Assembly: GCA_019914995.1 (NCBI GenBank)
Contig: CM034138.1
Span: 7,012,535 to 7,076,534, forward strand
From: Acanthochlamys bracteata
Lineage: Eukaryota; Streptophyta; Magnoliopsida; Pandanales; Velloziaceae
Length of the DNA: 64,000 nt
Direction: 5' to 3'
Made by a program: the position numbers and the translations under genes
In this document: positions 13,404 through 51,804 of the stretch, one piece after another
Position numbering within the stretch: position 1 is the stretch's first letter
Layout of the letters: each line of letters opens with the position of its first letter
The notes under the pieces: model-generated
What the model was told of the DNA's origin: nothing
Databases searched by the model: none
Seen by the model: the letters and a program-made list of their open reading frames with translations, nothing else

Positions 13404-16400
13404 AGCAGAGAAAGAAAGAAAGAAAATTCAAGAACACAACAGAGTGAAAAATTAACACAGAAATCGAGAGAAAAAGAGAGAATGTAATATTCAAGAACAA
13501 GTCAGCAGAAGAAAAGTATAAAAAAAAAACAGAGAAAACAAAATAGAATTGAAAATCCACCAGTACACTGAAGAATTCAGCAAAGAACAGGGAAAAAGAA
13601 AAGGAAATGGAAATGAAGAAGAAGCAGAGTGATTATTTCCTTTTCTTATTAAATTCTTTTCTGCTTTGAGCTTTTGATTTTGTCGAGGGAAAGGAGGAAC
13701 AAACAAACGAGCACTGAGACTCTGAGAGCAGGCACAGTCAGAACCCCACTGACACAATATGGTTGATGTGTGAAAGCATCAATTCATACATGATCAAAGA
13801 TTCCAACAACAAACAGGGTTGTAGATAGTGTGAAATTTATTTTTATTGGATTGATATTTATTTTTATTTTTATAATTTACAATTTTTTTAAGTTAAAAAA
13901 CATAAAATTTATATCTTAAAATTTATTATTAGTTTATGTGTATTCTTTTTTAAGATAAAAAAAGAAAACTTATTTTCTAAAATATTCAAAATAACTTCAA
14001 TTATAAAAAAAATATTTTTTTCAAAAATTACTTGAAGCATTCCTCCTGTAACCTAACCAGCAAAACCATAGCATACTAAAATACTTATAAAATAAAATTT
14101 TTTCTAAAAAAATATTTTTATTTTCTAAAAATAAATTATATTTTTTTACTTTTTAAAAAATAAAATATATAATAAAAAAATTTTATTATGTAGAAATTTT
14201 TATATTTTCTAAATTTTTAAATAAATTTCTAAACATTTATAAAATCTATATTAACAAATATAATCTTGAATAAAATTTATTAAATTTTTAAATAAATTTC
14301 TCCTAACTAAAATACAGCTTTACTAACATCTTCTTAAAAGGTTGTTTTGTTGCAAGCGGGAAATTTAAAAAATAAATGTCTAGTTAATCAATTTCAATTT
14401 ATATATAGGACTGGTTTTAACTTCCAAAATTTCAATCAAATTATTTTTTATAAAGAATAATACTTTACTATACTTATATTCGATATATTGGATTTGATTT
14501 ATGATCAATTCTGTATTAATTTATAACATGTTAAATATTCGAGACCGGATCGCTTCCGAGTTCAGACTGGATCAATATATGCTTCGCATATAATGGGTCT
14601 GTTTTTTAGAAAATATTATCAATTTTTTAACTTCAAATTTTTTTAATAAATTTTTCATAATATTTAATAGAATTGATTTAAAATTTTAAAAATTAAAACA
14701 AAATTACGTCATAAAATTTTATTTTTTTGATAAAACTATAAATTTTATTTTTTAAATAAAAAATATTTTATATAAGAACTTCCAAATCTCTCAGAGTTGG
14801 TCCACCGGTCAAGTCATATACCAAAGTAAAACCTAAACTACAAGAGTTTTAGACATCTTTCAGTCTTTTGGCAGTTTTTTTAATAAATTTTTTTAATTAT
14901 ATATTTGTTAATAATTTTTTGTAATTTTATAAATTTTTAAAAAGTATATAATAATTCGAAATCATCGTAAGATCTAGTATTATTGAGTTTTACTTTTTAA
15001 AAAAAATGTAATGATCATTTAAAACAATTTTTAATATATTTGAAAAAGCTAAGAGATCATTTTCTATTAATTATAAAAGTATGCTATATGTTAAAAAAGC
15101 TTATAAAAGCCGCGTTTGTCGACTAGTTTGTTTAATTTTTTATGTCCTATTTTTTAATAAATTTTTTATAATTTTCTACAATATTTATTGAAAATTTTAA
15201 AATTTTACATAATAAAAAATTTTATTTTTTATTTTTATTTTTTAGATAAAAATAATATTATTTATCGAAATAGAATAAAAATATATTTTGTTTTAAAAAT
15301 TTAAAAGCAATTTCAAACACACCTTAAAGGAAAATTTTCTAAAAACTAATCTATCTTCCTTTAGTTAATTTTTTTCAATATGTATACAATAATTATAAAA
15401 TATAATTATTTGTTTTTAAATTAAAAAATTATTACAATAAGATTTTTTAAAAGGCGAAAGATAATCATCTAGAGGCCTTTATGGGCATGAAAATTAATTA
15501 TGTCATAAATAGAGCAATTTTATTTTAAGTTTCACTTTATATATTGAAAAGTTCTTTTAAAAATCTGACACTCGTTATAAAATAAAATTTTTTGAAATTA
15601 AAAAATATATTTTAAAATAAACTTTATCTATTTACTAAAACGTAACTAAAAATATACAATAATAAATTTTTAATATATAATTTTTTAGTTTTAACAAATT
15701 ATTAAATAAATTTTCTAGGAAGTTGTATAATGTTTACTAGTGCGTACTAAACATAGGGCGTGTTTACCAAGTAAGTAACCTGGAGTTTGAAAATTTTTGA
15801 AAAGTGAATTTAAAAATTAAACTAAAATATTTAATAAAAATAAATTTTTATGTAATAATAATTTTAAAATTAAATTTTTTTGATAAAAGAATTTATTTTA
15901 AATTATTTATTTAATTTATATTAAAAATAAATTTGAAAATAATAAAATTTGAAGTATCGGTAAATATGCACATAGGCCATAGCCAAACGAGCCAAATCGC
16001 CAGTTAGGAAATGTTCTTTTCACAAGTTACAACTTACTTCTTTGTAATAGAAAATTATTTCAGCTAATACAAAACTTGAACGCATTTTTAATAAAACAAT
16101 TTATAGTAATATTTTTAATAGCTCGTTTTAGCGCAAAAAAACATACGGTAAAAATATTGTTCAAAACTGTTACTTTGAGTATTGAAAATTTTACAATATA
16201 AATTTATCTGTTTATGTTGAATTTAATGCTAAGAAAATTTGTACGAGTTTTTATTTCACGCCGAAGGTGATTTATCATTTTTAATTACTAAAAATAATCT
16301 TATATAACTAAAAATAAACTTTTATTGCATAGTAGGAATTTAAATTTTTCAGCTAAAATTTAAATTTTTTTAAAATAATTTATTAAAAATATAATTAATA

Positions 16401-29438: not shown

Positions 29439-32337
29439 TTATCGTACATTTTCAGATAGCAGTAACCTTATATGATCATCAAGAAGTGGAAGACTTTGGT
29501 CTTCTTCATATGCATACATAACCCTAACCATCCTTGCAGTATTCAGGGAAGCTGTCAAAAAGTTCTGCGAAATGTTTCTTCTCGAGTTGATCAGTTCATT
29601 GTTGAGCCCTTGCCATGCATTTGATATCATCCGCTTCACTTGATCCCTGGCTTCTGTACTCGAAGAACAAGGATGTTCTTTCTTGTAGCATTCCAAATAA
29701 GAACCATCGTACCCATTCTGGTTCTCATCCTAAAACATGCAGCATTAATCAGTTCACTCAAGTCTCAAATTTCTGAAATTATATGATGTGTTTAAACCAT
29801 TCCGCGTGCCAATTAATCCTCTAAATTAGTTTCTGTATTAAAAAATAATTTTTTTTTATTTAAGAAACAAACTTTATTTTTTATATTTAAAAAATAATAA
29901 AAATTTGTAATAAAGTAAATTTTTTCTATATTTTCTAAAATTTTAAGTAATTTTTTAGATATTTATAAAATATATATTAAAAAATGTAAATAAAAAATTG
30001 AAAAGCCATCTTTTTGATAAGTTGAATCAAACATGCGTTATTTGATCGTTGCTTATAGGATAATTTTCACTCCTCTATTTTTTTTATATTTTTAAATAAA
30101 TTTTTATTAAAAATATTTATTAAAAATTTAAGAAAATATAGAAAAATTTTATGTTATAAAACTTTTTTTGCCTTTTTCAGATAAAAAAATAAAATTCGAT
30201 TTCAATAGAATAAAAATATTTTAGTTTTAGAAAAAAATTTATTTTATAATCACTTTCAAATATTTCTTACCTTGGCAGATCCTAGGTCATCCCAAAGACG
30301 AAGAATTGTTGCAGGATAAGAGATGATCATGGGATGGCTATCTATTTTCTCCGCATTTTCTTTTGTAATTTCTTCTCCGAGTAGGAAGAAGAGATGCACG
30401 AGCACAATATGAACTCCACAACTTACACGAGCACTCTCCATGTATTCATCAACATTTGGTACTTGTCCGGATGAATACCATTTTGCTTCTCGCAGGAATG
30501 CTTCGCATAATTCAATCCACTAAAAATTTCAAGAAAACAGAAGAGTTTAAATTTGTGTCGGTCGAAATCTATTAGTTCTTCACATAAATAACTAATTCAT
30601 CCGTATCTACAGCGTATATGTGCGTTTGTCTGATCTTTTCCTAGCTTTTTATAAGTTTTTTTTAGTTTACGTTTTTTAATAATTTTTTTATAATATTATA
30701 CAAAATTTATTTAAACATTTAGAAATTATAAAAAAATTTACGTCATAAAATCTCATTACTATTTATCTTTTATTTTTTTAAAAGAAAAAATAAAGCTTAT
30801 GTTTTGAAATAAAATAAAAATATATTTTATTTTATAAAATTTCTTTTCATGAGCATTCTTAAACTTACTGCTTTTTTGAATGAGTTGATGGGGTTCCATC
30901 CATGTTGCTTGAGCACATTTTCCGCAACATCTTTGGTAGTATTGTACAAGCATTCATAGCATTTCCTCATATAGCATGGAAGTGAGTTCACAGCGGAAAG
31001 TTCCCACCTAAAATTCATTTTACATAAATTAATTCATTTTTTCGATAACGAAAGTAGTTAAAAAAAAAGAAAGAACTGACTTACTTATTAACGGCTTCGG
31101 TGAAGAGGTTGAGTTCATCAAGTGTTCCATAGACATCAAATATATCATCCATAATGTAGACAAAGGAAATAATCTTTGCAAGATCCATTCTGCATTTGGA
31201 GAATTCTGGATATGGTATTATATTCATAGGCCACATGAACCATTTCAACGGTTGATCTCGAGCTAGTTTTAGTTCTTCTGCTAACCCCAAATCCTTCCAC
31301 CATCTGCATATACAGCAAACATTTATAAAAGAAATTAACTATCCGAGTTATGTAACTGCGTTAATGTTAAATAATTTTGAAAGAAAAAACATACAATAAA
31401 TCTGTCTACCTTAATATTTCTGCGGCCTCTCTTCGGTTCAGGGATTGGATAATGTTGAAATCTAACTTGGCCAATTCTTGGAAGGCTTCATTCCACGGAG
31501 TTGATCTTCTGTAACAGTCATGATCGAGATGGTACCGTACTCGAAACCTCTGCACATTCAAATGATACGGGTTCTCCAGTGTGTGCTTCACTTGCGATGC
31601 AGATTGGTGATCCAAGAACTCTGCAGCTTTCTGCAAATGTTTAGTTGAAAACACATTGGCTTCATGAAGCAAGTGTTCTCCATGAGTACTCAAATGGGAT
31701 GCTTCATACAAGCTCAGCATTCCTTCTATGTCCTTACTCAATGATAAGTTGAAGTGCCCATCAGAATCCAAGAATCTGCCTAAAACTTCTGAAAAATGGA
31801 GGAAATGTATCGTTAAGGTTCTGTCGATACTTATTTAGTAGGACTTCAATTGGCAAGAAGAGTTCTCACCTGCAGATATAGGATACCCAGCTTGCCTTAG
31901 TAACCGAAATGAAAGTGCAACATAGAACAAATCATTCTTCATTGGATTTTTTCTGAGAAATTGTTCATAGACCGAGCTCAAAATAACTTCAATCTCATCT
32001 TTGTAGTGGTAATCTATACCGAGTTGTTGAAGTGAATCTATCATCCTTACAGAGGCTCGCAAGTCACTGTTGTCATTGCGAAGAATTTCTCCAACTTTAA
32101 GTACGTATTTCTCATGCTTAGGAAACCAAAAAGCATAATGAGGATGGGAAAAAAAAATTATAGCACAATGGAAATGAAAGAGGAAAAAAAATAAACAAGA
32201 ACTACCTTTAGGGAGATTGTTTTGGAAGGAAAATGATCATGTTTTTTGAATACTTGAAGCTGCTGCTGCTGCTTGTTTTTGCTTGCTGTACATGGGAACA
32301 TGCCATAGGGAACCATTTGAAGTATGGAAGAAATCAT
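29439..32337 (-). CDS. Terpene synthase, TPS-g-like (acyclic mono-/sesquiterpene alcohol type)
   Basis: Seven exons, the usual class III TPS number: 32337-32206, 32116-31870, 31788-31410, 31303-31085, 31007-30869, 30519-30271 and 29729-29439. They join in frame to 551 residues. The metal-binding motif DDIFD is at 305-309 and the NSE/DTE motif DDLGSAKDE at 449-457. The RRx8W motif is absent and the N-terminus is short. This fits the TPS-g subfamily, whose members often make acyclic alcohols such as linalool or nerolidol from GPP or FPP. The exact product and the compartment (cytosol or plastid; the first ~40 residues are only weakly transit-like) cannot be read from sequence. The start is the first Met after an upstream in-frame stop. 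All junctions are GT-AG and the gene looks functional. Confidence 0.9.
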
Positions 32338-36267: not shown

Positions 36268-39200
36268 TCACAAAATATCAGATTTAATATGTGAAGAAAT
36301 CAACGATGGCTTTGGGGGCAATGGCAAGTCCTTGCCGTCTCCTTCCAACATCTCAATAACTCTGTTCATTGAAGGACGATTTTCAGGCGTTGTTTGTATA
36401 CACCAAATTCCTACAAGCAGCATTTTCCTTATAATTTTGTTCGACACATTCGCGACTAACTGTGAACTAATGTCATGACTCTCAACGAGTGTTCTATAAA
36501 TGGAGTCTGGAAAATAGTCTTCGCTACCTTCTTCGACATTATTCATGACAGATTTATCTTGTGCTCCGAATATTTCCAAGATCATCATGCCATAGCTGTA
36601 TACATCAGACTTACTTGAAACAACTCCAAAACTTCGAGAGAAAACTTCTGGAGCAATGTAACCAGGTGTACCTCTCGTTCCATTTATCGACACAATGCTA
36701 CCTTTAGAGGAGCACAGCTTTGCTAGCCCAAAATCAGAAATTTTGGGACAGAAATTTTGGTCTAGTAGGATGTTGTGAGGCTTGATATCGAAGTGAACCA
36801 TCCGAGCATTGCTTCCACGGTGCAGGTACTCCAATCCACGGGCTATTCCAACAGCTATGTCGTAAAGTTTTTCGCAACTAAGGTATGGAACCTTCGCAAG
36901 CTTTGCATGACGGATATGTTTGTCAAGTGAACCATTCGGCATGAAGTCATAAACCAGAGCTCTCTTCGAACCCTCGGAACAAAACCCTCTGAGTGTGACG
37001 ACATTTACATGGGACGTCTTGCCGATGCCAGCAACCTCATTGACAAAGTCTTCACCATTTTCAGTAGAAATGTTTAAAATCTTCACTGCCACTTCACGGC
37101 CATTTGGTAGGGTTCCTTTGAATACAAATCCAAATCCTCCTTGTCCAAGTTTTTCCTGGAATGATTTTGTCATCTTCTTTACCTCTGCGTATGTGTAGCG
37201 CTTTGGAGCCAAATAATCATACTTCTCAAGAAATGACTCGATAGCTCGAGCATGGTTTGGTATTTCCTTCCAGAAAATGCATCCTTGGAAATTTCGTTTG
37301 TAACTTATGAAGTAGGGAAAAATGAGTAATGCGGACAGGAGCAGGCCTCCGATACCAAAACATATTGCTGAAAAAGTTCAATATGAGATGTATTAAGAAA
37401 AACTATAGACTAGTTAAGGTACTTCTATACATGAACATGTACGTAGGGACTCCTATTTACTTACAAAAACAATGTAAGTTTTGAAAATATACATAAGTTT
37501 TGCTAAGGCTTAAGTGTATGTTATTTTCTTTCACTAAAAAGCACTTTCAAGTTAGTCAAAAAAACATAATTAGTTATTTCCAATTCGCCACTTTTTATAA
37601 AAAATATATAAACTAAATCTATTTTAACAATATTATTTATAATAATTCACTTTCAGTAACTCCTTTCAACTCACTTCTAGCTCAAAAAAACACACCCCCC
37701 TAAATGCATGCATCAATTATCTTAGAACTTGCCGTATTTTGCAAAAAATACTCACTTGTAAACTCATTTTTCAATACAATCAGATAAAAGGTTACTTTCG
37801 AATTTACTTTCAAACAATATTAAATAAAAAAAATTTAACTCACTTTTCAAAAATATTTTATACGAACTCATTTCACCGCAACTAACCAAGCCCTTATAGT
37901 CTTCTGCTTTGTACTGCTTTTCCGAATACCACCATACCCGATCAATAATCCATCTCAAGGAGATGCTTCTCACCTCCTATACTATGCAACAAAAGAGAAT
38001 GGGTTCAAGGTTAATACTCCTATACTATGCAACAAAAGAGAATGGGTTCAAGGTTAATACTCCTAGTATTACCATTTAAGAAAATTTAGGGGTTCCAATT
38101 CGAATTTGTATATCGGTTTCGGATCGACCAATCTAATCCGATCTATTTATTTATATGGATCAAAACTACCAATCCTAATCCAATCTATTTAATAATCCGA
38201 TCAAATTCGGATCAACGTATTTAATAATTAAAATAAAAATTATAAATATTAATTTCTAATAATAATATTTATTTTGATAAATTTATAAATTAAGTAAAAA
38301 TTAAAATAAATTAAGAAATATATATTTACAAATTAAATTCAAATTTTATACTATTATTTTTTAATTATTAAATAATATATATTAATAGTTATACAGATTG
38401 AATAGATTAATTTCGGATCGATCCGAATCTGACTAAGTTGTTCGTATTAATTTTTAATTGATCCGAAATTGACTTGAATTCTGTAAGGCTCGATCCGAAT
38501 CCGATTTTTTGGGTCGAGTAAAAAATTATCATCCCTAATTACATATTGATTTTGGAAACTCTAGAATTTTAACTCTATGAAATTTCTTTTTTAAGAAATT
38601 TAAGAATCTAACTTCGAGAAGCAAAATATAAATAGTACTATTGAGATACAGTAAAGTTACTTGTATAATTTTATTTACCTAGTACGGTCTTTTTCCGAAC
38701 ATGGTGAATATTCCCTGCAACAAAAGAGAAAAAATTATAAACACAGTTATTACGTTATAGTTCCTAAAGTGATATTTTGGTCCAACAAAAAGTCAATGGT
38801 AAGTGATATTTTGGTCCAGCAAAGTCAACTCCTAAAGTGAAAAAGTTTTTTTCAAGTAAATAATCAAGATCTACCTGTATATAAATACCACAAGAAAATT
38901 ATTCAGAGATATTTTCTGGATTATTGCTTTTATGCAATATTAAAAGAAAATGTGAGATTTCTTAGCAAAACTGCATCTGAGTAAATCAAATGTACAAAGT
39001 GACTCACCGGTGGTGCCGCAGTTCTGACTATAAGCTCCGTCGCTGCAGTAGCAAGTGAAGTCGTAGCTTCCGTTGCTGGTTACGCTGTAGCCGCAAAACC
39101 CACCGGACTTCTCGCATCCATCGCAACCGTCAGCGGTCGTCTGCGTCCATCCAAGCTCAAACCCATTCTTCAGCGCCGAACCGAACCCTCCTCCGATTAG

Positions 39201-39836
39201 CCAGCTATAGTCTCTGAGCTGTTCGGACTCTAGTACTCTCACCGTCACCAACTCATCGCACTTCAGGGCATAAAATACGTCCCAAAGAATTACGTCTGTC
39301 CACAAAACATAGGACTGTAGGTCAGACTTTACCCCTGAGAAGCAAGTCGCTGGCTTCAACACCGTCGGCAGGTCTGGCAGGTTCGCAATCGGCGAAGAGC
39401 AGTTGAAGAAAAAGGTAAGCGTAGCGTCTCCGTCTGTGTACCTGAACTGGCTTTCAGAGTCCCAAACGGTAGCGTTGTGGCGGACCCTCGGACAATTTCC
39501 GGCAGTAGTTAAGACGTCAGTGTCGGTGAGCTTAACCGTCCGTTGATCGTAGTCGATCGCGGTGACGGTGTGGTTGTCTTGGCCGAGGTTAACTATCGGA
39601 TAGCCGCCGGAGCAGTATATGGCGAAGTTCTTGTAGCCGCAAAATGAAAAGGGATTGTTTTTTGTTTGCTGGAGAACGTCTTCGAACCAGAAAGGGTAAC
39701 GTATGGTGATATTGCCGCATGTCCTCGTAGGGCATGTTGCCGGATAGTCGCAGAGGGTGATGGTAGTAGAAGAAAGAAAGAGCGGCAAAAGAAGAAGATG
39801 GAGAGAACAAGGAGGTGGTCTGGCGTTGTTTGGCAT
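36268..39836 (-). CDS. LRK10L-type receptor kinase, HFD (non-RD) kinase, divergent-pair member A
   Basis: Three exons (39836-39008, 38714-38679 and 37367-36268) join in frame to 654 residues. Exon 1 encodes a signal peptide and a Cys-rich wall-associated-type ectodomain (GUB_WAK-like CPTRTCGNIT start, WAK-associated-like C-terminal part with GCEKSGGFCGY). A 36-nt microexon encodes a basic linker. Exon 3 encodes the transmembrane helix (~291-310) and the whole kinase: GQGGFG (363-368), Lys 384 in VAVK, HFDIKPHN (480-487) and DFG (500-502). HFD in place of HRD makes it non-RD, normal for the LRK10L-2/PR5K-like clade. A plasma-membrane role in defence or growth signalling is inferred from family. 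Intron 2 holds a hAT-like element and a tandem duplication, but coding is intact. It diverges from a plus-strand partner starting at 43225. Confidence 0.9.
37974..38059. repeat. Perfect 43-bp tandem duplication in intron 2 of receptor kinase A
   Basis: The unit 'ctcctatactatgcaacaaa...' occurs at 37974-38016 and again at 38017-38059 with no mismatch. 'ctccta' then begins a third unit before the sequence diverges. Perfect identity in an intron implies a recent slippage or duplication event, or an assembly artefact. Confidence 0.9.
38087..38537. mobile_element. hAT-like non-autonomous element in intron 2
   Basis: Starts TAGGGGTTCCAATTCGAA and ends ...AAATTATCATCCCTA. The ends match the TAGGGGTGGCAAT-type termini of the nested set at 26.8-28.8 kb, and subterminal 'ggatcgatccgaa' motifs are shared. 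No convincing 8-bp target duplication is visible, so it is probably old. It lies wholly inside the intron (37368-38678) and leaves both splice sites intact. Confidence 0.65.
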
Positions 39837-42800
39837 GATTGATTTTGCAACACAGAGAGAGAGAGAGGTAGCTCTATATATCTCGGAGTTGAAGAAGATG
39901 ATGAGGGAGTTTTTGTGTCCGTGGTTAGAGTTGATAAGGAAACTTTGACTTTTAGGTCAGATAATGTCCATGACCATGGGCAGTGGACTGGAAGTCAACC
40001 TCTGTACATGATTTTCCGAAGCTAAGGAGATGTTTAGGGGTGATTATTAAAAAAAGTTTTTTTTAAAATAGAGATATTTTAAAATTTTTTTAAAATTAAG
40101 TTAATTTTTTTAATTTAAAAAATTAATAAAAATAATTTTATGATATAAATTTTTTATATTATTAAAATTTTTAAAATTTAAAAAATTATAAAATAAAAAA
40201 TTAGAAAAAAAAAGCTATTCCAAATATAGTCTAAGAACCAAGCGGTTCATATCAAATCTCAGGTTTCGTGCGTCTTATTCATCCTAACAATTTATTTTTT
40301 TACTAAAAGATTAGTTACAATTTTTTTTCAATTTTACTTATATATATATATATTGTAATAAAATTTTAAAACATTTATAATTTTTTAATTTAAAAATATA
40401 AAAAGTTTTATATTATAAAGTTTTATTTTTAATTATTTAATTAATTTTAGTCAAAATAATATAGCTTATTTCTAAAAAATTTTAAATACATTTATTTCTT
40501 AAAAAATTATATTGTTAATAAGCACTTCAAATATGCTACGTAACTCTACTTGCACCCTATCAAAAGAATACAAAAATCAATACCAATTCATTTTCTATAA
40601 AAATATAAAATTATTTCTAACATCACTATTTACAGCAATTTATTATCTAATAATTTATTTTTTAATAACTAAACTCTCAGCGTTAGAAAAACACACTACC
40701 GTCTGTGGTTGGATTAAGGCTCTATTTGGCTGTGGTTGGAAATTGGAATAAGCTCGAAAAAAACACGGAACAGTATTTGAAGCATTTGGATATTGCAGCT
40801 ATATACAGTATTTGGTAGTACATATCAAAATACTACTTTTTAAACTTTTTTTATTATATATTTTTTAATATATATTTTATAAGTATTTAAAATTTTTATT
40901 TAGAAATTTAAATATTATAGAAAAATTTTACGTAATAAAATATTTTTATTATATATTTTTATTATTTTCTAAAAATAAAAAAATAAAACTTATTTTTCAA
41001 AAAAATAAAAATATTTTTTATTTTAAAAAATTTCTATTTTATAAGTAATTACAAACGCACCGATATTTTAGAATGCTTTTAATAGTATATTTTGAAAAAC
41101 ATCTCATAGATACTTTTCAGAAAAAGGCACGCGGTTGCTTCTTTTTCTTCATGCGAAGTAATTATATTGTCTACCGTAAGTTTTAAAAATACCATATTAT
41201 ATTAATCATTTAAATAATATATAAATTTTAATAATTATTTAATTATATTTTTCAAATTTAATATAATAATAATAATTATATAATCAATATTATTTATATT
41301 AATTATTGATTGATATCAATAATATAATTTGTTAATAAATTTATAAATATTAATACAAATAATTATTTATATAATTTTTACATAATAAATTTATTAAATT
41401 TAAAAAGTAAATAATATATCAAAAAATTAAAAATTTTATAATATATCAATTATTATATATTCAGGCGTATTTCAGTTATTTTATATTTTATATAAAAATA
41501 AATATAAATTTAGTCAAATACTTAATTCAGCTTTCAGTATTAAAAAAATGATATAGTAATAATTTATTCAAATATTTTTCTATATAAAGCTATTTTTATA
41601 GCTAAAATTTTATAGCCGTTTATAGTATTTTAAAATAACTTTCTTTTAAAAGTATAAAAATTTCAGCAGTCCAAACATAGCCATAGGCCCAAAGCGAGTG
41701 CCCTGATGTTAGGAATGTTCGTATGTTGATATCCAAGCGAAAATAATGTTTGAATGAAAAAGCATTTATAAGCTGAAGAAAATAAAAAATTAAAATATGT
41801 TTTCTTATAAAATATCTAAAAAATTTTATAAATTTAAAATAATTTATTTTAAGACTCACAGATGACTCAAAAGTAGAGAAGTTTGAAATTTAGCTACATA
41901 CATGATCAACTTGTCCAAGAGCGTTTGACTAAGCTATAAAAAATATTTTTTATTTTTTATTTTTGTAATATATATTTTTATAATTATTTAGAAATTTTAT
42001 TTAGATTTTAAAAAATATAAAAAATTTTATGTAATAACATCTCTTATTATTTATATTTATTTTATTTTGAAATAAAAAAATAAAAATATTTTTGTTTTAA
42101 AATAATTCTATTTTAAAAGCAGGTAGTAGTTCCACCACCAGCTGCATGAATGCTACCCTTTTAGATAAAAAAATGTTGACCTATTGACTAAAGGCCAGCA
42201 CTAGGATTCCGGGTGCGTTTATTGTTTTTTTTTCCGACGAAATTTTTTAATTTTTAATATATTTTATAATATATATTTTATAAATATTTAAAAATTTATT
42301 TAAATATTTAGAAAGTATAAAAAAATTTTATATAATGATATTTTTTTATTACATATTATTATTTTTTTGGAAATAAAAAAATAAAATTTATTTATGAAAA
42401 AAATAAAAATATTTTAATTTAAAAAACTTTATTTCATAAATAATCCTATATTTTTCAACGCGCATAATGAACACCAGCTTAAATGAAAACCTTAATTTGA
42501 ACCCAATTAAAAAAAGGTGATATTAAAAATATTTATAAAATAAAGTTTTATGAAATAAATATATTTTAAAAAATGAATTTTAAAATAAATATAAAACAAT
42601 AATAAAATTTTTTATGATATTTAATTTATTTAAATAAATTTTATAAATATTATAAAAAAGTATTTAAAATATAAATAAAATTAAATAAATAATTAAAATA
42701 TACTACAAAACGGTGCCTAAGCAAACATCAATGTATGTTTCTGTCACCAAATAGAAACTTTCATTGAAAAGAATTTTAGATAATTTTTAATGAATTGAGT

Positions 42801-43224
42801 GGAACGCTGAATTAGATTCATAGGATTGCTGTTCATTCTTTATTAGCGTGTTTACTAATTCTCTAAACTTCACTTTAATTTATTTTTAATATAACTAAAA
42901 TTTTTTAAATAAAATATTTTTATTATAATTTATTTTTTTAAATTTAATTTTAAAACTTACTAATTTTAATTTAATATTTTAAATTTACTTTTCTAAATTT
43001 CCAAAACTCAAGTTCACTTGCTAACTAAAACTGCCCACAACGGAACCAACCAAGCAATTGATCAGCGTTTGACGAACAAAAACATTTGAAGTCTTGGTCA
43101 AGCAATACACAAAATTCCACTTCCCTGAAAGACACCCCAACTAATAAAGAAAAAATTAAATCCTTTAACCTTCTTCCTCTATGCGACTCTGTCTCTCTTT
43201 TCTACAGAAAACCAATAAACAAAA
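39837..43224. other. Divergent intergenic region between the two LRK10L genes
   Basis: 3.4 kb holding both promoters. A 'gatatatagag' TATA-like motif with a CT-rich patch lies 45-60 bases upstream of gene A. The middle (about 40.0-43.0 kb) is AT-rich with many repeat fragments sharing the 'ttataaaataaaattt' and 'aataaaatattttt' phrases. No intact gene is present. The upstream sequences of the two genes are not obviously alike, so the duplicated segment starts inside exon 1. Confidence 0.55.
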
Positions 43225-46210
43225 ATGTTTCCTTCTTCATCTCTGCATCATCACCATCGTCTTCTTCTTCTGATGCTCTTTCTTTCTTCTACTACCATCA
43301 CCATCTGCGATTATCCGACGGCATGCCATACGAGGACATGCGGCAATATCACCATAAGTTACCCTTTCTGGTTCGAAGACGTTCTCCAGCAAACCAAAAA
43401 CAATCCCTTTTCATTTTGCGGCTATAAGAACTTCACCGTATACTGCTCCGGCGGCTATCCGATAGTTAACCTCGGCGAAGACAACTACACCATCAAGGCG
43501 ATCGACTACGATCAACGAACGGTTAAGCTCGCCGACACGGACGTCTTAAATACTGCTGGAAATTGCCCGAGGGTCCGCCACAACGCTACCGTTTGGGACT
43601 CTGAAAGCCAGTTCAGGTACACAGACGGAGACGCTACGCTTACCTTTTTCTTCGACTGCTCATCGCCGATTGCGAACCTGACGAACCTGCCAGACCTGCC
43701 CACGGTGTTGACGCCAGCGACTTGCTTCTCAGGGGGAAAGTCTGACGTAGGAGAACTATCCTATGTTTTGCGGACAGACGTAATTCTTTGGGACGTATTT
43801 TATGCCCTAAAATGCGATGAGTTGGTGACGGTGAGAGTACTAGAGTCCGAACAGCTCAGAGAATATAGCTGGCTAATCGGAGGAGGGTTCGGTTCGGCGC
43901 TGAAGAATGGGTTTGAGCTTGGATGGACGCAGACGACCGCTGACGGTTGCGGTGGATGCGAGAAGTCCGGTGGGTTTTGTGGCTACAACGTAACCAGCAA
44001 AGGAAGCTACAATTTCACTTGCTACTGCAGCGACGGAGCTCATAGTCAGAACTGCGGCACCACCGGTGAGTCACTTATTGATTTATTACTCAGATGCAGT
44101 TTTGCTAAGAAATCTCACATTTAAGAAAAGAAAATTTATGAAAATTGTTTTATAAAATTTTTAAAATATTAAATAAGCGATAATATTTATATAAAAATTA
44201 TTTATATATTTTCGTTTTAAAAAATATTATTTATAAGTATTTTAAATATTCTCTTAGTCAATAAGAATAAGTAACAGATGCTCATCGATAGGATTGACTA
44301 CAAACAAGATTTGAAGACTTATATAAGCGTCGTTCAAACTTTGAACAAAGGATTTTCCTAAAGAAAATTTTCTTTATAGGAGGAAATTAAAACTCTCTCT
44401 TGCTATTATGTTAAAATTTTAGTCAAAAGAATTCTAGACTCAAGACAATGGCATCTAGGAAACTTCCCTGAATTACTAGTTGCACCTTGACTTGCTAATA
44501 AAGTGATAGAGGTCATCTGCATCTTCTTGGTAGGCACCGGAAGGTTTAGGAATGTTTATAAAATAAAAGTTTAAAATTAAAAATATTTTAAAAACATTTT
44601 AAAATATAAAAAATATTTTTTTATTAAACTAATAATAAAATAAATATTAATAAGATTTTATGATATGTATATATATACATATATATTGTATTTTTTAAAA
44701 TTTTAAATAAATTTATTAAGAAATATTATATTAGAAATACTAGTTATATAATTTGTTATCTCTATCAATCCAGCCGATGTTAACGGGCCTCTTTTTTCAA
44801 AAGCAGGGAATCACACTCGAACAAAAATTATAGTTGGTAAGTTTCTTCACTCATGGTTTCTCCAATATCTTTGTGCCAAAATCATCTTCTCAGATGAATA
44901 GGTTTCTTGATTGTTCCTTTTGTTGCAATATATAACAGGATTTTCTTCTGGAGCTGGTACTTTAGTTCTAGCACTAGCAGTTTTCTTGATATGGTTCAGA
45001 TACAAGAAGCAAAAATACATCTCTGCATCTTCGTCCTATTACCGTTCTGCGTCTTCTGAAACACCTTACAAAGATCCAGAACTTGGAGTGAAGAACCTTC
45101 AGACTCACCAGTTCTCCTACGAGGAGCTCCAACAGGCTACAAACTTCTTTGATGCCTCTAAAGAACTTGGTGATGGCGGATTTGGCACCGTTTACAAAGG
45201 TATCTTTGCTTGATCAAGACTTGCCCTTATGCTTGTTCTGCTACTTTCTTACTGAAATATATGACTCGACATATACAGGCAAACTGCGAGATGGTCGTGT
45301 TGTTGCAGTGAAACGCTTGTATGAGAACAACTGCAAGCGCGTTGAGCAGTTCATCAACGAGGTTGAAATCCTATCTTTTTTGCAGCACCCCAACTTAGTG
45401 CGTCTTTACGGTTGCACGCATTACCAGAGCAGGGAACTTCTGTTAGTCTACGAGTACATCTCAAATGGTACCGTAGCGGATCATCTCCATGGTCCTCGGG
45501 CTCCTGAAGGATTATTGACATGGCCGATTCGGCTAAGCATTGCCATTGAAATAGCCGATGCTCTTTCCTACCTCCATGCAATCGATCCACCGATCATCCA
45601 CCGTGATGTTAAGTCGACCAACATACTGCTAGATGGCAACTTCAGTGTTAAAGTTGCAGATTTCGGGCTTTCGAGACTCTTTCCTACTAATGCAACACAT
45701 GTATCTACGGCTCCTCAAGGAACACCAGGGTATGTAGACCCTGAGTACCATGTGACATACCAGTTGACAGACAAGAGCGACGTCTACAGCTTCGGAGTTT
45801 TTCTTGTAGAACTTATATCGTCGAAACCAGCTGTGGATATTACTAGAAAGAGAAGCGAGATCAATCTGGGGATGATGGCGATCAATAAAATTCAGAGCGG
45901 TGAACTAGAGACGCTTGTTGATCCTGGACTTGGTTTCAAGTCAGACGCAGAAGTTAATAGGATGGTCACAAGGGTGGCAGAGCTTGCATTCCGTTGTTTG
46001 CAGGACGACGGTGAAATGAGGCCTCCAATAAAAGAGGTGCTCGAAGTTTTGAGAGAAATCGAAGGAGGAGCATTTAGTGCCAAGAAAGATGCACAAACTG
46101 AAGATGAAACCGGGGTGGCAGAGAACAAGAAAGTGCAGCATCCGGATTCGCCTACTTCCGTTCAGGACCAGTGGGAGAGCAGGCGAACGACGCCTAACAA
46201 CAGCGGCTAA
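43225..46210 (+). CDS. LRK10L-type receptor kinase, HRD (RD) kinase, divergent-pair member B
   Basis: Four exons (43225-44065, 44807-44836, 44939-45199 and 45279-46210) join in frame to 687 residues. Exon 1 encodes a signal peptide and an ectodomain about 90% identical to that of the minus-strand gene at 39836. A 30-nt microexon encodes a basic linker. Exon 3 encodes a transmembrane helix (~295-312), a juxtamembrane region with SYYRSASSETPY, and the glycine loop start. Exon 4 holds the rest of the kinase: Lys 389, HRDVKSTN (485-492) and DFG (505-507). It is an RD kinase of the LRK10L-1 (At1g18390-like) clade, unlike its partner. An intron splits the glycine loop after VYK. The ligand is unknown; plasma-membrane location is inferred from signal peptide and TM segment. 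Confidence 0.9.
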
Positions 46211-46947: not shown

Positions 46948-49900
46948 CTAAAAGCTTCTGGCAGCTAGCCAACGGCTGTAGAAGGCTAATGCCTCTTGTG
47001 GCTTGTACTCGGGCACAGTATGACCAGCTCCCTGTGCATTAACAGCAATAACAGAAGCAATGAGCAATATCATATCACAAATTGTCTAACATCTGTAGTG
47101 TTTTTTTTTTTTTATAGAAACAGTAGGTATATTCAAAATGGAGTTCCCAATGCATGATTCAGCTAGCATATTCTATATATTATGAAGTATATAGAGAAGT
47201 ACTAAGCAAACCGGCTGACATCCTTTGCAAAATTTAAGTGTAATACCTTTATGGTGAGAAAGGTGAGATTATTCATGTAACCTTGCATATATCTGCAAGA
47301 TAGAAGAAAATACGACTTTTGTAAGTTTTTCTTATGCTTCCAAAAAGTTTGTAAAAGCATGTACCCAAAAAATACAAATCTGTAAAAACAAGATATAAAT
47401 ATGGAGAACGTCATGTAGATACCCGGCAAGTTGACCATCCACATGCCAAGGCCTCCACGAATCAATCACTTGATATCCTAGAGACCTAGTCCATGCTTCG
47501 CTTCCGGTGAATGGGACACACATGTCATGGTCACCACTGCCAAAGGTTGAAAAGGGTAACAAAATGGTCATGAAAAGGAAAATATGAAATGCACAATTTT
47601 ATGAGTGAGTAAAAACAAATTTTCACATTAGTCGATAGAACGAAGGCACTTCTTTTGATCTAGTCATTTTAAGACTCATCATGCAGCCTATAGTTTTACA
47701 TTGGATTTCAATAAAGAATGAGACTCGGGGGCACACCCTGGGTCCCATCTGCATCCCACCTTACTGGTACAACTTGAACTATGTACTGCTTTTTAAATCT
47801 AGGTGGGAAACTGTGTGGATGCACAGTAATATGTATTAATAATTAGAAGTGATATTTAAGCTAGGAACCAATTCTTTTATGCTGATTTGTGTAGATACAG
47901 AAATGGCAGAATCAACATTAGCATAGACAAGATGGGAGCACACTGTGAACACTCTGATTCTTACTATAAAAGTAACTCAGAAAAGAATTGGCAATATTAG
48001 ATCAGAACCTAAAGGAAAGTTGATAAACATATTGCTCTGGATGATATATGTTACCTATATATAAGGGCACGGTATCCTTTAGTTGTAAGGTTCCTGTGAT
48101 ATTTTATCATGCTTCCAGCATCACTATAATAGTTTATCTTTCCCGTACACAACTCCCATGGGCCTGAAACATCTTGCTGGTTTGTTCAAATTCAACAGAA
48201 AGACCAATGAGTATTTAACATGAGACGATATTGTGCGTACTGAAGAACTATTCAACTTACTGGTTGGGCATGAACAGCATTTCTCACTGCATCATTGTTC
48301 AGCCATATTGTAGAAACTCGATCGTCCTACGTGCATATGCCATAATTAACAGTTAGGAAAGGAAGACAAGCTAATTAATTTTATCTGTTGCTTTGTGGTA
48401 ATGAGAAAGAAGGAAAAAAATGAAGAACGGTAAAGAAAAGGAACTTACTGTGCAAGGAACTGAACTGCTGCCTAACTCTGGCCATGTTGGAATGCGTCCT
48501 TCCTTGACGGGAGCCCTCAAAGGCCAAGAACGGCCAAACATCCTTTTTCTCACCGGCAGAGGTCTACTGGTCTCACCAAGTCTTCTAAAACTAGATGGCA
48601 ACCTGCTGTTAGCAGACGTGATTTCACTAACTTGGGGGCTATGATAGCATGGCTCAAGAATGTCATAGATGTTAAGATCATTGAGCTCCTGCACATGAAA
48701 AATGTGGAAATTTACAACTGAAGGTCAATAACCAAGACCACTAAATCTGAAATGTCAAACTACCCAATTGATTCTGTCAAGCTTGTCCTGGCAACTTTGG
48801 TTTACAGGGTTCCAGTAACTCCCATAGCATGCAGAATTTACCTCCTGATGAAAGTAAAGCAACTAACATTAGGCTATTTCATTCCGAAGTTGCAAGAAAA
48901 TCAACAGCCTGAAGCCAAACAAGAATATAGACAATCTAAATTTTAATAATTGAGAAGTTCAGGATTATATCACTTGAAATATGTAAGTATATGCCAATTA
49001 CTGAAAGTTGAAACTATCTTGTTTAGATGAACAAATAGTATGTCACATTGCCACCTGATATAGATCATCAGAAATAAGACCCATTCCATGTGCAAATGGC
49101 ACTAGAGCATCACCATCGAATGCTGCATCAGTAACTCCATTTCCCACCATGTAGCCCTAACAGAATACAAGATCAGCCAGCTCGTTTTAATTAGTTTCAT
49201 AATGTTAGAAGGAATGAGACTAACCTTAAAGTTGAGAACAGGCTTTAGACCTTCTTCAATCCCTGACGCAATGATTTCATGAATCAAAAATCAAGAGAGA
49301 CAAAGAACGTGTATCCTTGGGGAAGGTATAGAAGATAATCAATTACCTTTGACAACTTCATTAGCAAGAGTAGGGACATATACTCCAGCATAGGACTCCC
49401 CAACAATATAGAAAGGGTTATCAAGGTACTCAGGGTAGGCTTCAAACCACTGTTTAGAAATTTTACCACATCATAGACTTATATAGTGCACCATGAATAA
49501 AGCAGCGACATATATCATTCAAGAAATGAATCCAAATCTACGAAACCATAATTTCATATCTAGAAGAGAGAGTATCTTGAATAATTAGGAAATTATAAGA
49601 GTACAACTGCATCAAATACCTACTGAACATATGTAACCTTGCTTTCTTGCCTTACCTTCAGTAGGAAGCTGTGCGTATCAGAAGCAGTTTTCAGGTCTCC
49701 AGTAGTGTAATCTGACACATTGGTCGAGTATGAAAACCCAACACCAACAGGAGAGTCCAAATAGATGATACTAGATACCTGATTAATGAGGTAATCAGCA
49801 GAACATTACAATATCAGCTCCTTCCAACATTCTATTCATTTTTTTATGTTATAAAAAAATAAAAAAATTTATTAAAAAAAAATTAGCTTCATTCTATTAA

Positions 49901-51804
49901 TGTCACCTTTGACCAACTGTATGGATTGAGATGCAATTTCGGTAAGCTTCCTGCTGTACCTGCTTCAAAATTGAAAGGCCCTGCACATATGGACACAGTT
50001 CACACTTTAATTGAGTTACCAATCCAACCAATCTACTAGTACTACTACTACTACTACTACTACTATAATAATAATAATAATAAGGAAGAAACCAATCTAA
50101 TCAAACACCGGTCTCCAAACCTAATGTGTACAGAGAATAATCAAGAGATGTGCATCCCTGGCAAAAAAGGAGCTCTCTCCTATAAATTTCCTGAAGCTCC
50201 AAGTGCTCATAACAAGACATCTTTTGTTCATGATCATTCATAAGAACCCTACAGCATAAGCTATCAGATCATAGCAGATAGAAAGTCAACCACAACTTAT
50301 AGTAGAAATTTGCCAAATAAAAATCTGAGACATGAAAAAATTTCTCTCCGAACCAGATAAGTAGGAAAGAGATATATTCAACTAACCTAAAATTTTCATT
50401 GCGATGGTAACCTAAATTAGGAACAAGATATGCCAACAATATATGGGATAAAACCAAGATGCCTTTTCCTCAAAGCATGAAACCAACACTGAAGTTCATC
50501 TAAGTAAAAAAATAAGAAGGAAGAAGAAGAAGTACCATGCTCATAGACAAATGCATCAAAAGATGAGCAGCCTGGACCACCATTCAGCCAGAGTACAATA
50601 GGGTCCTTGGATGGGTTTCCCTCAGATACCACGAAGTAATAATACAGATTCTTTGCTTGTTCCTCGTCAATCATAATATACCTTCATAGTATAAAGGTTA
50701 AAAAAACAAAGAAACCTTAGTTCCAGTTAATCAAGATTCAACCACCAATATCTAAGAAGCTTTTATAGGTGCTTTTGTGAGTGATTCGAAAGCTGCATCT
50801 CCTCAACTTCATTTATGCAGAAATTCATGAATTGCGAAACCAGTGAATTGGATCGACACTAACTTCCACAGGTATTACCTAATGTAATTTCTTAGTTTAT
50901 ATAGCGTATGAGTACAAGCGGGGTTCAAATGTTTCTTACACCCAATCTACAAAAACCACATTTTTAGAGCAATCTAAACTATCAATAACATCTCAAAAGC
51001 AATCAACATTAATAAAATGATGAACAGTGACCGACAGAAAAACTCTATAAAAACTTGATGAAAGTTCTTGCCTCCTTGGGCATCAAAATATAAATTTCCA
51101 CAAAATGTATAGTATCAATAGGGAAATACAATTGCTTTTCTTTCCATACTTTTTTACAAGATTATCTAAACATTTCACCTGCCATTCAAAGGAAACAGAG
51201 CCCTACTAAGAATTCCAAAAGCTCATTACTAGAATTTTCAGTAAAGTGACCGCCAATAGAAGGGAAAAATAACTTTTCATAAGAATAGTTCACAAACCCA
51301 AGAAATTTCTTAAAGTAAAATCAAGAAAAGAGATATTTATTTTTCATAAGCTTCCTGTCAAGAGACAAAATCTAATCCCCTATTACCCATTTAGTAATCC
51401 ATATCCATTCCAGGTTGGGGAGTCTATAAGCTGTTCAGCAGTGAAAAGCCCCTACTTTATCGGGTTGGTTAGACAAGACGCCAGATAGCAAGAATATTAC
51501 AAAATCTAACTTCTGCAAAGAGAGAAAATTTAAAGCTCTCAATAGCAATTCAACAAGTTTATCACTAACTGGACTTCAACATAATTATTAAAAAAAATAA
51601 GAAAGCAAACAAACTCAGGAGTCGATCTAAAGCAGGGGAATTCTAACTAAATTGATTAACTCACCCAGCGTAGTGGTTTGACGAAAATTTTCCTTCGAAT
51701 CCTGGAAGGTGAGTGACGAGGGCGCTCTCCGGCGCTGCGGCAGCAGCAACGAACAGAGAAGCCGCTGCAACAACGGAGAGCAAGAGGCGAAGAAGAATCG
51801 CCAT
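46948..51804 (-). CDS. Serine carboxypeptidase-like protein (S10 family, SCPL20-like)
   Basis: Fourteen exons: 51804-51665, 50681-50536, 49980-49907, 49778-49656, 49449-49347, 49262-49225, 49156-49055, 48844-48764, 48688-48449, 48326-48261, 48176-48055, 47536-47423, 47292-47247 and 47031-46948. All are GT-AG and join in frame to 492 residues. The N-terminus is a signal peptide (~1-24). The oxyanion motif NGGPGCSS, the nucleophile in GESYAG (Ser 180), Asp in GDHD (413-416) and His 469 in GAGHTVPEY are all present. The wording is closest to Arabidopsis SCPL20, a peptidase-type rather than acyltransferase-type clade. It is secreted or vacuolar by signal peptide. A likely activity is removal of C-terminal residues from peptides; substrates are unknown. 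A compound ACT/TAA microsatellite lies in intron 2. Confidence 0.93.
50041..50083. repeat. Compound (ACT)n(ATA)n microsatellite in intron of the carboxypeptidase gene
   Basis: About eight ACT units run directly into about six ATA units inside intron 2 (between exons ending 50536 and starting 49980). Probably length-polymorphic. Confidence 0.9.

What the first reader, a model, noticed from the sequence alone, without database searches (positions are those of the whole stretch)
36268..46210. Divergent LRK10L pair: one ectodomain, two kinase clades
Exon 1 of the minus-strand gene (39836-39008) and exon 1 of the plus-strand gene (43225-44065) differ at only about 24 of ~245 aligned ectodomain residues plus two short indels, counted by eye. 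The downstream modules are clearly not recent copies. One has TM and an HFD non-RD kinase in a single exon. The other has a separate TM exon and an HRD RD kinase with an intron in the glycine loop. This suggests exon duplication or gene conversion that kept a shared sensor and attached it to two signalling outputs, or homogenised two old neighbours.
Basis: partly seen in the sequence, partly recalled or inferred. Interest (0 to 1): 0.82.

Follow-up and report, generated by a model that had tools for sequence, protein, structure and literature searches.

The report
Paired plant receptors sharing one sensor
Two neighbouring plant receptor genes with unrelated signalling ends carry almost the same sensing end, most likely because DNA copying rewrites one sensor with the other, and a duplicated copy of this gene pair elsewhere in the same genome shows the same thing happening separately.

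Summary
Exon 1 of the two head-to-head genes differs at 24 of 242 aligned ectodomain residues plus two indels; 800 of 866 positions match, and the match stops about 60 bp into intron 1. The kinases fall in types split at 100/100. Three more loci in this genome carry a divergent non-RD/RD kinase pair. C13 (this window) and C14 lie in one duplicated block: 3 of 3 tested neighbours are inverted-collinear. Kinases follow gene type (135 residues against 0); ectodomains follow locus (80 against 0). Ectodomain dS is 0.095 within C13 and 0.000 within C14, but 0.64-0.65 between them, like the kinases (0.50-0.66). So an old receptor pair was duplicated and exon 1 was later overwritten within each locus: most simply gene conversion between inverted repeats, not a recent exon fusion. 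A cucumber pair of this architecture is published and was read as duplication plus fusion (PMC7649820). The closest logic is animal paired receptors (Siglec-11/16, PMC5701461). Shared ligand and two outputs are inferred; the module is decayed or irregular at two of four loci.

The parts
39008..39836 (-). Gene A (non-RD) exon 1: signal peptide, GUB_WAK_bind, WAK_assoc ectodomain
38679..38714 (-). Gene A exon 2: 36-nt juxtamembrane mini-exon
   Evidence: splice sites by eye; no transcript
36268..37367 (-). Gene A exon 3: TM and non-RD (HFDIK) kinase, stop
43225..44065 (+). Gene B (RD) exon 1: signal peptide, GUB_WAK_bind, WAK_assoc ectodomain
44807..44836 (+). Gene B exon 2: 30-nt juxtamembrane mini-exon
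   Evidence: splice sites by eye; no transcript
44939..45199 (+). Gene B exon 3: TM, juxtamembrane, start of glycine loop
45279..46210 (+). Gene B exon 4: RD (HRDVK) kinase and C-terminal tail, stop
38948..39798 (-). Homogenised tract, A-side arm (inverted repeat with 43260-44122; arms about 3.5 kb apart)
   Evidence: 800/866 identical
43260..44122 (+). Homogenised tract, B-side arm
   Evidence: 800/866 identical
44417..44440 (+). 24-base stretch of gene B intron 1 that recurs, among the loci held, only in intron 1 of the non-RD gene of the duplicated locus C14, across the edge of its tract; possible trace of homogenisation before the duplication
   Evidence: exact matches, 43 loci held; 1 window match, chance expectation 0.00

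Best explanation
The two genes form an old head-to-head pair: a non-RD (LRK10L-2-type) and an RD (LRK10L-1-type) receptor kinase. Exon 1 of each, which encodes the ectodomain with GUB_WAK_bind and WAK_assoc, behaves as one arm of an inverted repeat. Non-reciprocal copying between the arms (interlocus gene conversion) overwrites one exon 1 with the other from time to time. The tract is confined to the part that is still alike, from about the start of the coding sequence to the first part of intron 1; upstream regions, TM segments and kinases stay distinct. The pair was duplicated as a unit (C13/C14, and more distantly C12/C7), and in C13 and in C14 the overwriting took place independently after that duplication. 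Most likely consequence (inferred): two receptors of matched ligand specificity feeding an RD and a non-RD output, i.e. a plant counterpart of animal paired receptors. SHOWN: the homology block, the conflicting kinase and ectodomain trees, duplication of the pair, and within-locus exon 1 younger than the duplication. INFERRED: conversion as the molecular route, a shared ligand, separate regulation, and two outputs under selection. The confidence given is for the homogenisation by conversion; for the paired-receptor function I would give about 0.45.
For: Kinase tree (20 rows): non-RD ((C13,C14),(C12,C7)) and RD ((C13,C14),(C12,C7)), these forks all starred, the two types split at 100/100; holding C13's two kinases together is rejected (AU p 7e-50), likewise C14's (p 2e-74). 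Ectodomain tree (18 rows): C13A+C13B 99/98, C14A+C14B 98/98, C12 6885+6899 100/99, C7 8650+8670 98/95, all starred; C12 6894+6910 93/86, not starred. C13A+C14A is rejected at p 4e-34 and C13B+C14B at p 1e-38. Residue patterns: ectodomain 80 by locus, 0 by type, 0 crossed; kinase 0 by locus, 135 by type, 1 crossed. dS (NG86, bootstrap 95%): ectodomain C13A-C13B 0.095 (0.047-0.145), C14A-C14B 0.000; ectodomain C13A-C14A 0.637 and C13B-C14B 0.647; kinase 0.663 (A) and 0.501 (B). C14 tract: 1111/1121 identical, starting 4 bp before the ATG and ending about 300 bp into intron 1; 3 of 243 ectodomain residues differ. An older 72% block round exon 2 in C14 suggests events of different age and length. 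C13 and C14 are syntenic: 3 of 3 neighbours tested are inverted-collinear. No N in the 17 stretches checked.
Against: Repeated inverted re-duplications that replaced exon 1 would leave much the same pattern; C7 holds an inverted repeat of about 16 kb at 97.7% that looks like such a duplication. Within C13 the 40 nucleotide differences are not clustered (longest identical run 88 of 744 columns, p 0.21), so separate tracts cannot be told apart there. Function is not shown: dN/dS inside C13 (0.49) is like that between loci (0.50-0.52), so nothing marks selection for likeness. The module has decayed elsewhere: in C12 the kinase-proximal exon on the non-RD side is frame-broken, and the C7 RD gene's own exon has no non-RD-side copy. 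C12 and C7 have more ectodomain exons than kinases, so their gene models are uncertain. The ectodomain tree carries long-branch warnings for the outgroups and some C12 and C7 rows, and 7 of its 15 inner branches are open. No expression data.
Confidence: 0.85

Rival explanations
1. Exon duplication and fusion: exon 1 of one receptor was recently duplicated and fused to a different kinase, making a new chimeric gene (the published reading of the cucumber pair).
For: The architecture is as such a fusion would leave it: one exon shared, the rest unlike. The cucumber authors proposed it for a pair with >90% alike N-terminal and <30% alike C-terminal parts (PMC7649820, passages).
Against: Both kinases stood side by side before C13 and C14 split, with conserved order and orientation, so no new kinase was acquired when exon 1 became alike. 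It would need separate fusions onto existing genes at each locus. It may still be right for the first origin of the pair.
Confidence: 0.05
2. Inverted re-duplication: instead of conversion, stretches holding exon 1 are repeatedly duplicated in inverted orientation across the axis and the older exon is lost.
For: C7 holds an inverted repeat of about 16 kb at 97.7%, and C12 several inverted stretches in scrambled order with spare ectodomain exons (exon lists).
Against: In C13 and C14 the tract covers exon 1 in its place in both genes, with the splice donor kept, and the ectodomain search found one copy per gene and no spare one at either locus. Copying in place is simpler there.
Confidence: 0.12
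3. Neutral homogenisation (does not exclude conversion, only its function): copying occurs only because two alike exons lie close together in inverted orientation, and the sharing has no use.
For: dN/dS inside C13 (0.49) equals that between loci (0.50-0.52); in C7 8647/8673 it is 1.33 on few changes. Decayed copies in C12 and C7. Siglec-11/16 conversion is described as accepted under relaxed constraint (PMC5701461, abstract).
Against: In C13 both genes stay open, and C13 and C14 both keep intact ectodomain frames on both sides; the kinases have low dN/dS between C13 and C14 (0.16-0.19).
Confidence: 0.4
4. Slow ancestral divergence: the ectodomains are alike because they diverged little since an old duplication.
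For: The same ectodomain families occur on both kinase types (PMC7649820, passages).
Against: The same exons are only 56-59% identical in protein between C13 and C14 at dS 0.64-0.66, so this exon is not slow; 0 informative residues group by type against 80 by locus.
Confidence: 0.01

Closest known systems
Cucumber CsLRK10L1 / CsLRK10L2, downy mildew subQTL DM4.1.2 (PMC7649820, passages seen)
   Same: Genes in one cluster, N-terminal parts >90% identical, C-terminal parts <30% identical, one RD and one non-RD kinase, WAK-associated domain in both; the ectodomain is encoded by the first exon.
   Different: Read there, from one pair, as duplication of exon 1 plus fusion. Here duplicated loci date the events and show homogenisation of a pair already present. 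The passage names the oligogalacturonan-binding domain for the non-RD gene only; here both genes have GUB_WAK_bind. The orientation of the cucumber pair was not in the passages seen.
Animal paired receptors kept alike by gene conversion, Siglec-11/Siglec-16 (PMC5701461, abstract seen)
   Same: Like ectodomains and unlike signalling; conversion in the region with the ligand-binding exon, in every primate examined.
   Different: No homology is claimed. Inhibitory and activating properties and like glycan binding are reported there; here only RD and non-RD kinases are seen, and neither ligand nor output is known.
Brassica SLG/SRK at the S locus (recalled; search listing only)
   Same: A plant receptor ectodomain said (recall) to be kept alike with a linked copy by conversion.
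   Different: SLG lacks a kinase (recall); here both copies are full receptors with kinases of different types.
DUF26/CRK tandem arrays (PMC6368629, passages seen)
   Same: Gene conversion reported among tandem plant receptor-like kinases.
   Different: There it maintains likeness between recent tandem duplicates; here the likeness is limited to exon 1 of genes with different kinases.

Membership tests
LRK10-like receptor kinases (LRK10L-1 and LRK10L-2) | GUB_WAK_bind plus WAK_assoc ectodomain joined to TM and kinase | tested here: met
   both Pfam families above cut-off in both exon 1s, kinase families in both kinase frames; gene models. The defining set is from recall and PMC7649820
LRK10L-2 (gene A) | non-RD kinase within the LRK10L-2 clade | tested here: inconclusive
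   HFDIK and a clade with other HFD/HLD LRK10-like genes of this genome; no named plant reference was compared, so the clade name rests on recall and PMC7649820
LRK10L-1 (gene B) | RD kinase within the LRK10L-1 clade | tested here: inconclusive
   HRDVK, intron 45200-45278 in the glycine loop; clade name rests on recall and PMC7649820
Wall-associated kinase (WAK) in the strict sense | GUB_WAK_bind plus EGF-like domains | tested here: not met
   no EGF family at E <= 0.001 in the four frames scanned; definition from PMC11588464 (passages)
Concerted evolution | copies at one locus more alike than each is to its counterpart at a duplicated locus | tested here: met
   80 against 0 residues in ectodomains, 0 against 135 in kinases; AU tests; dS
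Paired receptors (works like; not homologous) | ectodomains kept alike by repeated gene conversion while signalling ends differ | tested here: inconclusive
   likeness renewed after duplication and unlike kinases shown; conversion as the route is inferred, and inverted re-duplication is not excluded
Paired receptors (works like; not homologous) | like ligand preference, co-expression and distinct outputs | not testable with these tools
   no expression or binding data

The most novel reading that the evidence does not exclude
Head-to-head LRK10L-1/LRK10L-2 pairs are an old, widely kept plant module, a true counterpart of animal paired receptors: repeated conversion keeps one fast-evolving wall or pathogen sensor wired to an RD and a non-RD kinase at once, so that any change in recognition reaches both outputs together. 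The cucumber downy-mildew pair would be another instance.
Probability: 0.35. Interest if true: 0.8.

Novelty: new variant of a known kind. Interest (0 to 1): 0.6.

Why it matters
It changes how such pairs are read. A neighbour pair with one sensor and two kinases, described in cucumber as a duplicated exon fused to another kinase, is here better explained as an old pair whose sensor exon is rewritten from its neighbour. If general, ectodomain trees of these immune-type receptors show locus history rather than gene history. It would also give plants a natural experiment like the animal paired receptors, with one recognition surface tied to two signalling outputs and evolving in step. The idea can be tested with ordinary comparative genomics, ectodomain binding assays and single or double knock-outs.

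Tried and rejected
Slow ancestral divergence: rejected, since exon 1 is only 56-59% alike in protein between the duplicated loci and 0 informative residues group by type against 80 by locus. Recent chimeric gene: disfavoured, because both kinases predate the C13/C14 duplication. Assembly-gap artefact: no N in the 17 stretches checked, but reads could not be checked. Mosaic tracts inside C13 exon 1: no clustering (p 0.21). Upstream homology by type: one 34-bp match C13B/C14B and none C13A/C14A; a 25-bp match C13A/C14B is of the wrong type; so the upstream regions say little. The intron relic also joins unlike types (C13 RD, C14 non-RD). Shared bidirectional promoter: start codons are 3.4 kb apart in C13 and about 9 kb in C14, so not pursued. 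Solved structure of the ectodomain: none at E <= 1. The PDB searches with the kinases and the NCBIfam scan only said that they are receptor-like kinases or kinases in general. dS by YN00 failed in 9 of the 21 comparisons; in 4 of those 9 NG86 was saturated as well; NG86 is reported. C12 and C7 were looked at as possible clean 1:1 pairs and rejected as such: more ectodomain exons than kinases, broken copies, scrambled order. Rows dropped: the ectodomain tree used 18 of the 25 stretches found in the fetched loci; the seven left out were fragments, diverged copies or the C7 kinase-proximal exon; the C12 kinase-proximal exons were not in it either. Genome-wide, GUB_WAK_bind had 41 matches, a number that the tool calls a lower bound. 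The kinase tree used 20 rows chosen from lists of 71 and 61 matches that overlap. A structure prediction was considered and not run. Odds changed on checking: rivals 1 and 2 were lowered slightly so that the exclusive readings do not add up to more than one; the best explanation was left as it was.

Literature: all 10 full-text searches of the held PMC library were used. Judged by titles and starts of abstracts, no paper describing conversion between LRK10L-1 and LRK10L-2 ectodomains was listed (3 of 3 listed; 0 found; 3 of 3; 0 found) or 54 (12 of 13 listed); only 15 of 43 and 15 of 3,017 were listed. Most subscription journals are not held. Seen: passages of PMC11018527, PMC6368629, PMC7649820, PMC11588464 and PMC10303076; the abstract of PMC5701461. 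No paper was read whole.
Full report
WHAT IS THERE. The window is G000:C13:7012535-7076534 of a 195.5-Mb assembly in 557 contigs, evidently a flowering plant (inferred from gene content). Two receptor-kinase genes stand head to head. Gene A runs on the minus strand: exon 1 39836-39008 (signal peptide and ectodomain), a 36-nt exon 2 at 38714-38679, and exon 3 37367-36268 (TM and kinase with HFDIK). Gene B runs on the plus strand: exon 1 43225-44065, a 30-nt exon 2 at 44807-44836, exon 3 44939-45199 (TM to the glycine loop) and exon 4 45279-46210 (kinase with HRDVK). Both models are open from ATG to stop; splice sites were set by eye without transcripts. The mini-exons were not in the finding. 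Both exon 1s match GUB_WAK_bind and WAK_assoc above the Pfam cut-offs.

THE OBSERVATION. Exon 1 and about 60 bp of intron 1 match at 800 of 866 positions. The tract is 38948-39798 on the A side and 43260-44122 on the B side and begins 35-38 nt after each ATG. Of 242 aligned codons 218 give the same residue, dN 0.047 and dS 0.095. In the 271 codons aligned between the two kinases 89 residues agree. No match was found between the 1.5-kb upstream regions of A and B.

FOUR LOCI, ONE ARRANGEMENT. Searches of the window's own genome with the ectodomain and both kinases and comparison of fetched stretches show three more loci in which a non-RD kinase of type A and an RD kinase of type B point away from each other, with ectodomain exons between them. 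On C14 the RD gene has its ectodomain exon at 636535-637284 (-) and kinase at 633922-635157, and the non-RD gene has its ectodomain exon at 646441-647190 (+) and kinase at 648270-649331. C12 has a non-RD kinase at 6876843-6877955 (-) and an RD kinase at 6916754-6917999 (+). C7 has a non-RD kinase at 8624806-8625933 (-) and an RD kinase at 8681582-8682982 (+) (open frames). C13 and C14 are a duplicated block: the three window neighbours that were tested (C13 7017364, 7024444 and 7033705) have their only other listed copies on C14, at 680317, 673193 and 659843, in reversed order and orientation that matches the reversed receptor pair. The first two of these C14 matches contain stops, which introns or decay could explain.

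KINASES AND ECTODOMAINS TELL DIFFERENT HISTORIES. In the kinase tree (20 rows) the non-RD and RD types are split at 100/100, and each type has the same shape, ((C13,C14),(C12,C7)), with these forks starred. Holding the two C13 kinases together costs 465 log-likelihood units (AU p 7e-50), the two C14 kinases 480 (p 2e-74). So the pair was duplicated as a unit, in at least two rounds. In the ectodomain tree (18 of 25 stretches found in the fetched loci) the two C13 copies are sisters (99/98) and the two C14 copies are sisters (98/98); holding the two type-A copies together is rejected (p 4e-34), as is holding the two type-B copies together (p 1e-38). That tree has 7 open branches of 15 and long-branch warnings for outgroups and some C12 and C7 rows. 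Residue by residue, in the four C13/C14 ectodomains 80 sites group the copies by locus, 0 by type and 0 crosswise; in the kinases 0 group by locus, 135 by type and 1 crosswise.

TIMING. Synonymous divergence between C13 and C14 is alike for ectodomains (0.637, 0.647) and kinases (0.663 for A, 0.501 for B), with overlapping bootstrap intervals; I take that as the age of the duplication. Within loci the ectodomains are much younger: 0.095 (0.047-0.145) in C13 and 0.000 in C14. C14 shows 1111 of 1121 identical positions, beginning 4 bp before the start codon and ending about 300 bp into intron 1. An older block at 72% surrounds exon 2 in C14, so events of different age and length seem to have occurred. 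A 24-base stretch of gene B intron 1 (44417-44440) recurs, among the 43 loci held, only in intron 1 of the C14 non-RD gene, across the edge of the C14 tract. It may be a relic of homogenisation before the duplication, but it is one short match.

THE OTHER TWO LOCI ARE LESS CLEAN. C12 has inverted ectodomain pairs across its axis: 6885/6899 (224 of 225 residues, dS 0.000) and 6894/6910 (210 of 216, dS 0.046). It also has a kinase-proximal exon, 6915672-6916520, whose inverted copy at 6879814-6880586 is 94% alike over 781 bp but frame-broken. C7 has an inverted repeat of about 16 kb at 97.7% holding two ectodomain exons per arm, one of them in pieces on the plus side. Its RD gene has its own exon at 8680520-8681281 without a copy on the non-RD side, and a degenerate non-RD kinase lies at 8639303-8640302. 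These loci support homogenisation across the axis. They also show that inverted duplication and decay take part, so they count against a strictly maintained module.

MECHANISM. The simplest account is non-reciprocal copying (gene conversion) between the two inverted exon 1s of a standing receptor pair, limited by loss of homology beyond the tract, with upstream regions and kinases untouched. It has happened separately in C13 and C14 since their duplication. Replacement by fresh inverted duplications cannot be excluded, least of all in C7. Within C13 the differences are spread evenly (p 0.21), so one event over the whole exon followed by divergence fits. Where C14 gives the likely ancestral residue, 8 residues changed on the B side and 4 on the A side; 12 could not be polarised.

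FUNCTION. Inferred: a fast-evolving ectodomain (dN/dS about 0.5 between C13 and C14, against 0.16-0.19 in their kinases) kept common to an RD and a non-RD receptor, so that recognition changes reach both outputs together. Nothing here shows ligand, co-expression or selection for likeness; dN/dS inside C13 equals that between the loci.

WHAT IS KNOWN. A cucumber pair, CsLRK10L1 (RD) and CsLRK10L2 (non-RD), has N-terminal parts >90% identical and C-terminal parts <30% identical. The authors inferred tandem duplication of the first-exon ectodomain and fusion to another kinase; they report that CsLRK10L2 can trigger necrosis and that overexpression of CsLRK10L1 had no effect in N. benthamiana (PMC7649820, passages). 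So the architecture is not new. What is added here is evidence from duplicated loci that the pair is old and the sensor exon is rewritten. [quoted passage not shown] Gene conversion among tandem CRK receptor kinases is reported in PMC6368629 (passages). The subfamily names LRK10L-1 and LRK10L-2 for genes B and A rest on recall and on PMC7649820, since no named plant sequences could be compared.

VERDICT. Observation confirmed; 'homogenised two old neighbours' supported; 'recent exon attachment' not. A new variant of a known kind, of interest mainly for the evolutionary mechanism and the paired-receptor idea.

Noticed in passing
G000:C7:8642087-8657896 and 8663794-8679681: Inverted repeat of about 16 kb per arm at 97.7% identity, about 6 kb apart, holding ectodomain exons but not the kinases.
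   Followed up: partly
G000:C12:6898000-6911300 (+ strand): Four ectodomain exons in a row before the RD side's kinase-proximal exon and kinase, with further ones on the minus side; possibly kinase-less receptor-like genes or a multi-ectodomain gene.
   Followed up: partly
G000:C7:8639303-8640302 (-): Degenerate type-A (non-RD) kinase; nine stop codons inside the match.
   Followed up: no
G000:C11:3970308-3970550 (-): Isolated ectodomain fragment, 56% identical to gene B's over residues 113-193 of the query, with four stops inside; a decayed relative away from any of the four loci.
   Followed up: no
window 31409-31834 (-): Frame with the N-terminal domain of a terpene synthase (Pfam E 2e-18).
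   Followed up: no
window 10630-13427 (-): LRR receptor-like kinase gene whose other copy lies on C14 at 673193-674707, 85% identical with one stop inside the match.
   Followed up: partly
window 49620-50683 (-): Exons that read like a serine carboxypeptidase (by eye; not searched).
   Followed up: no
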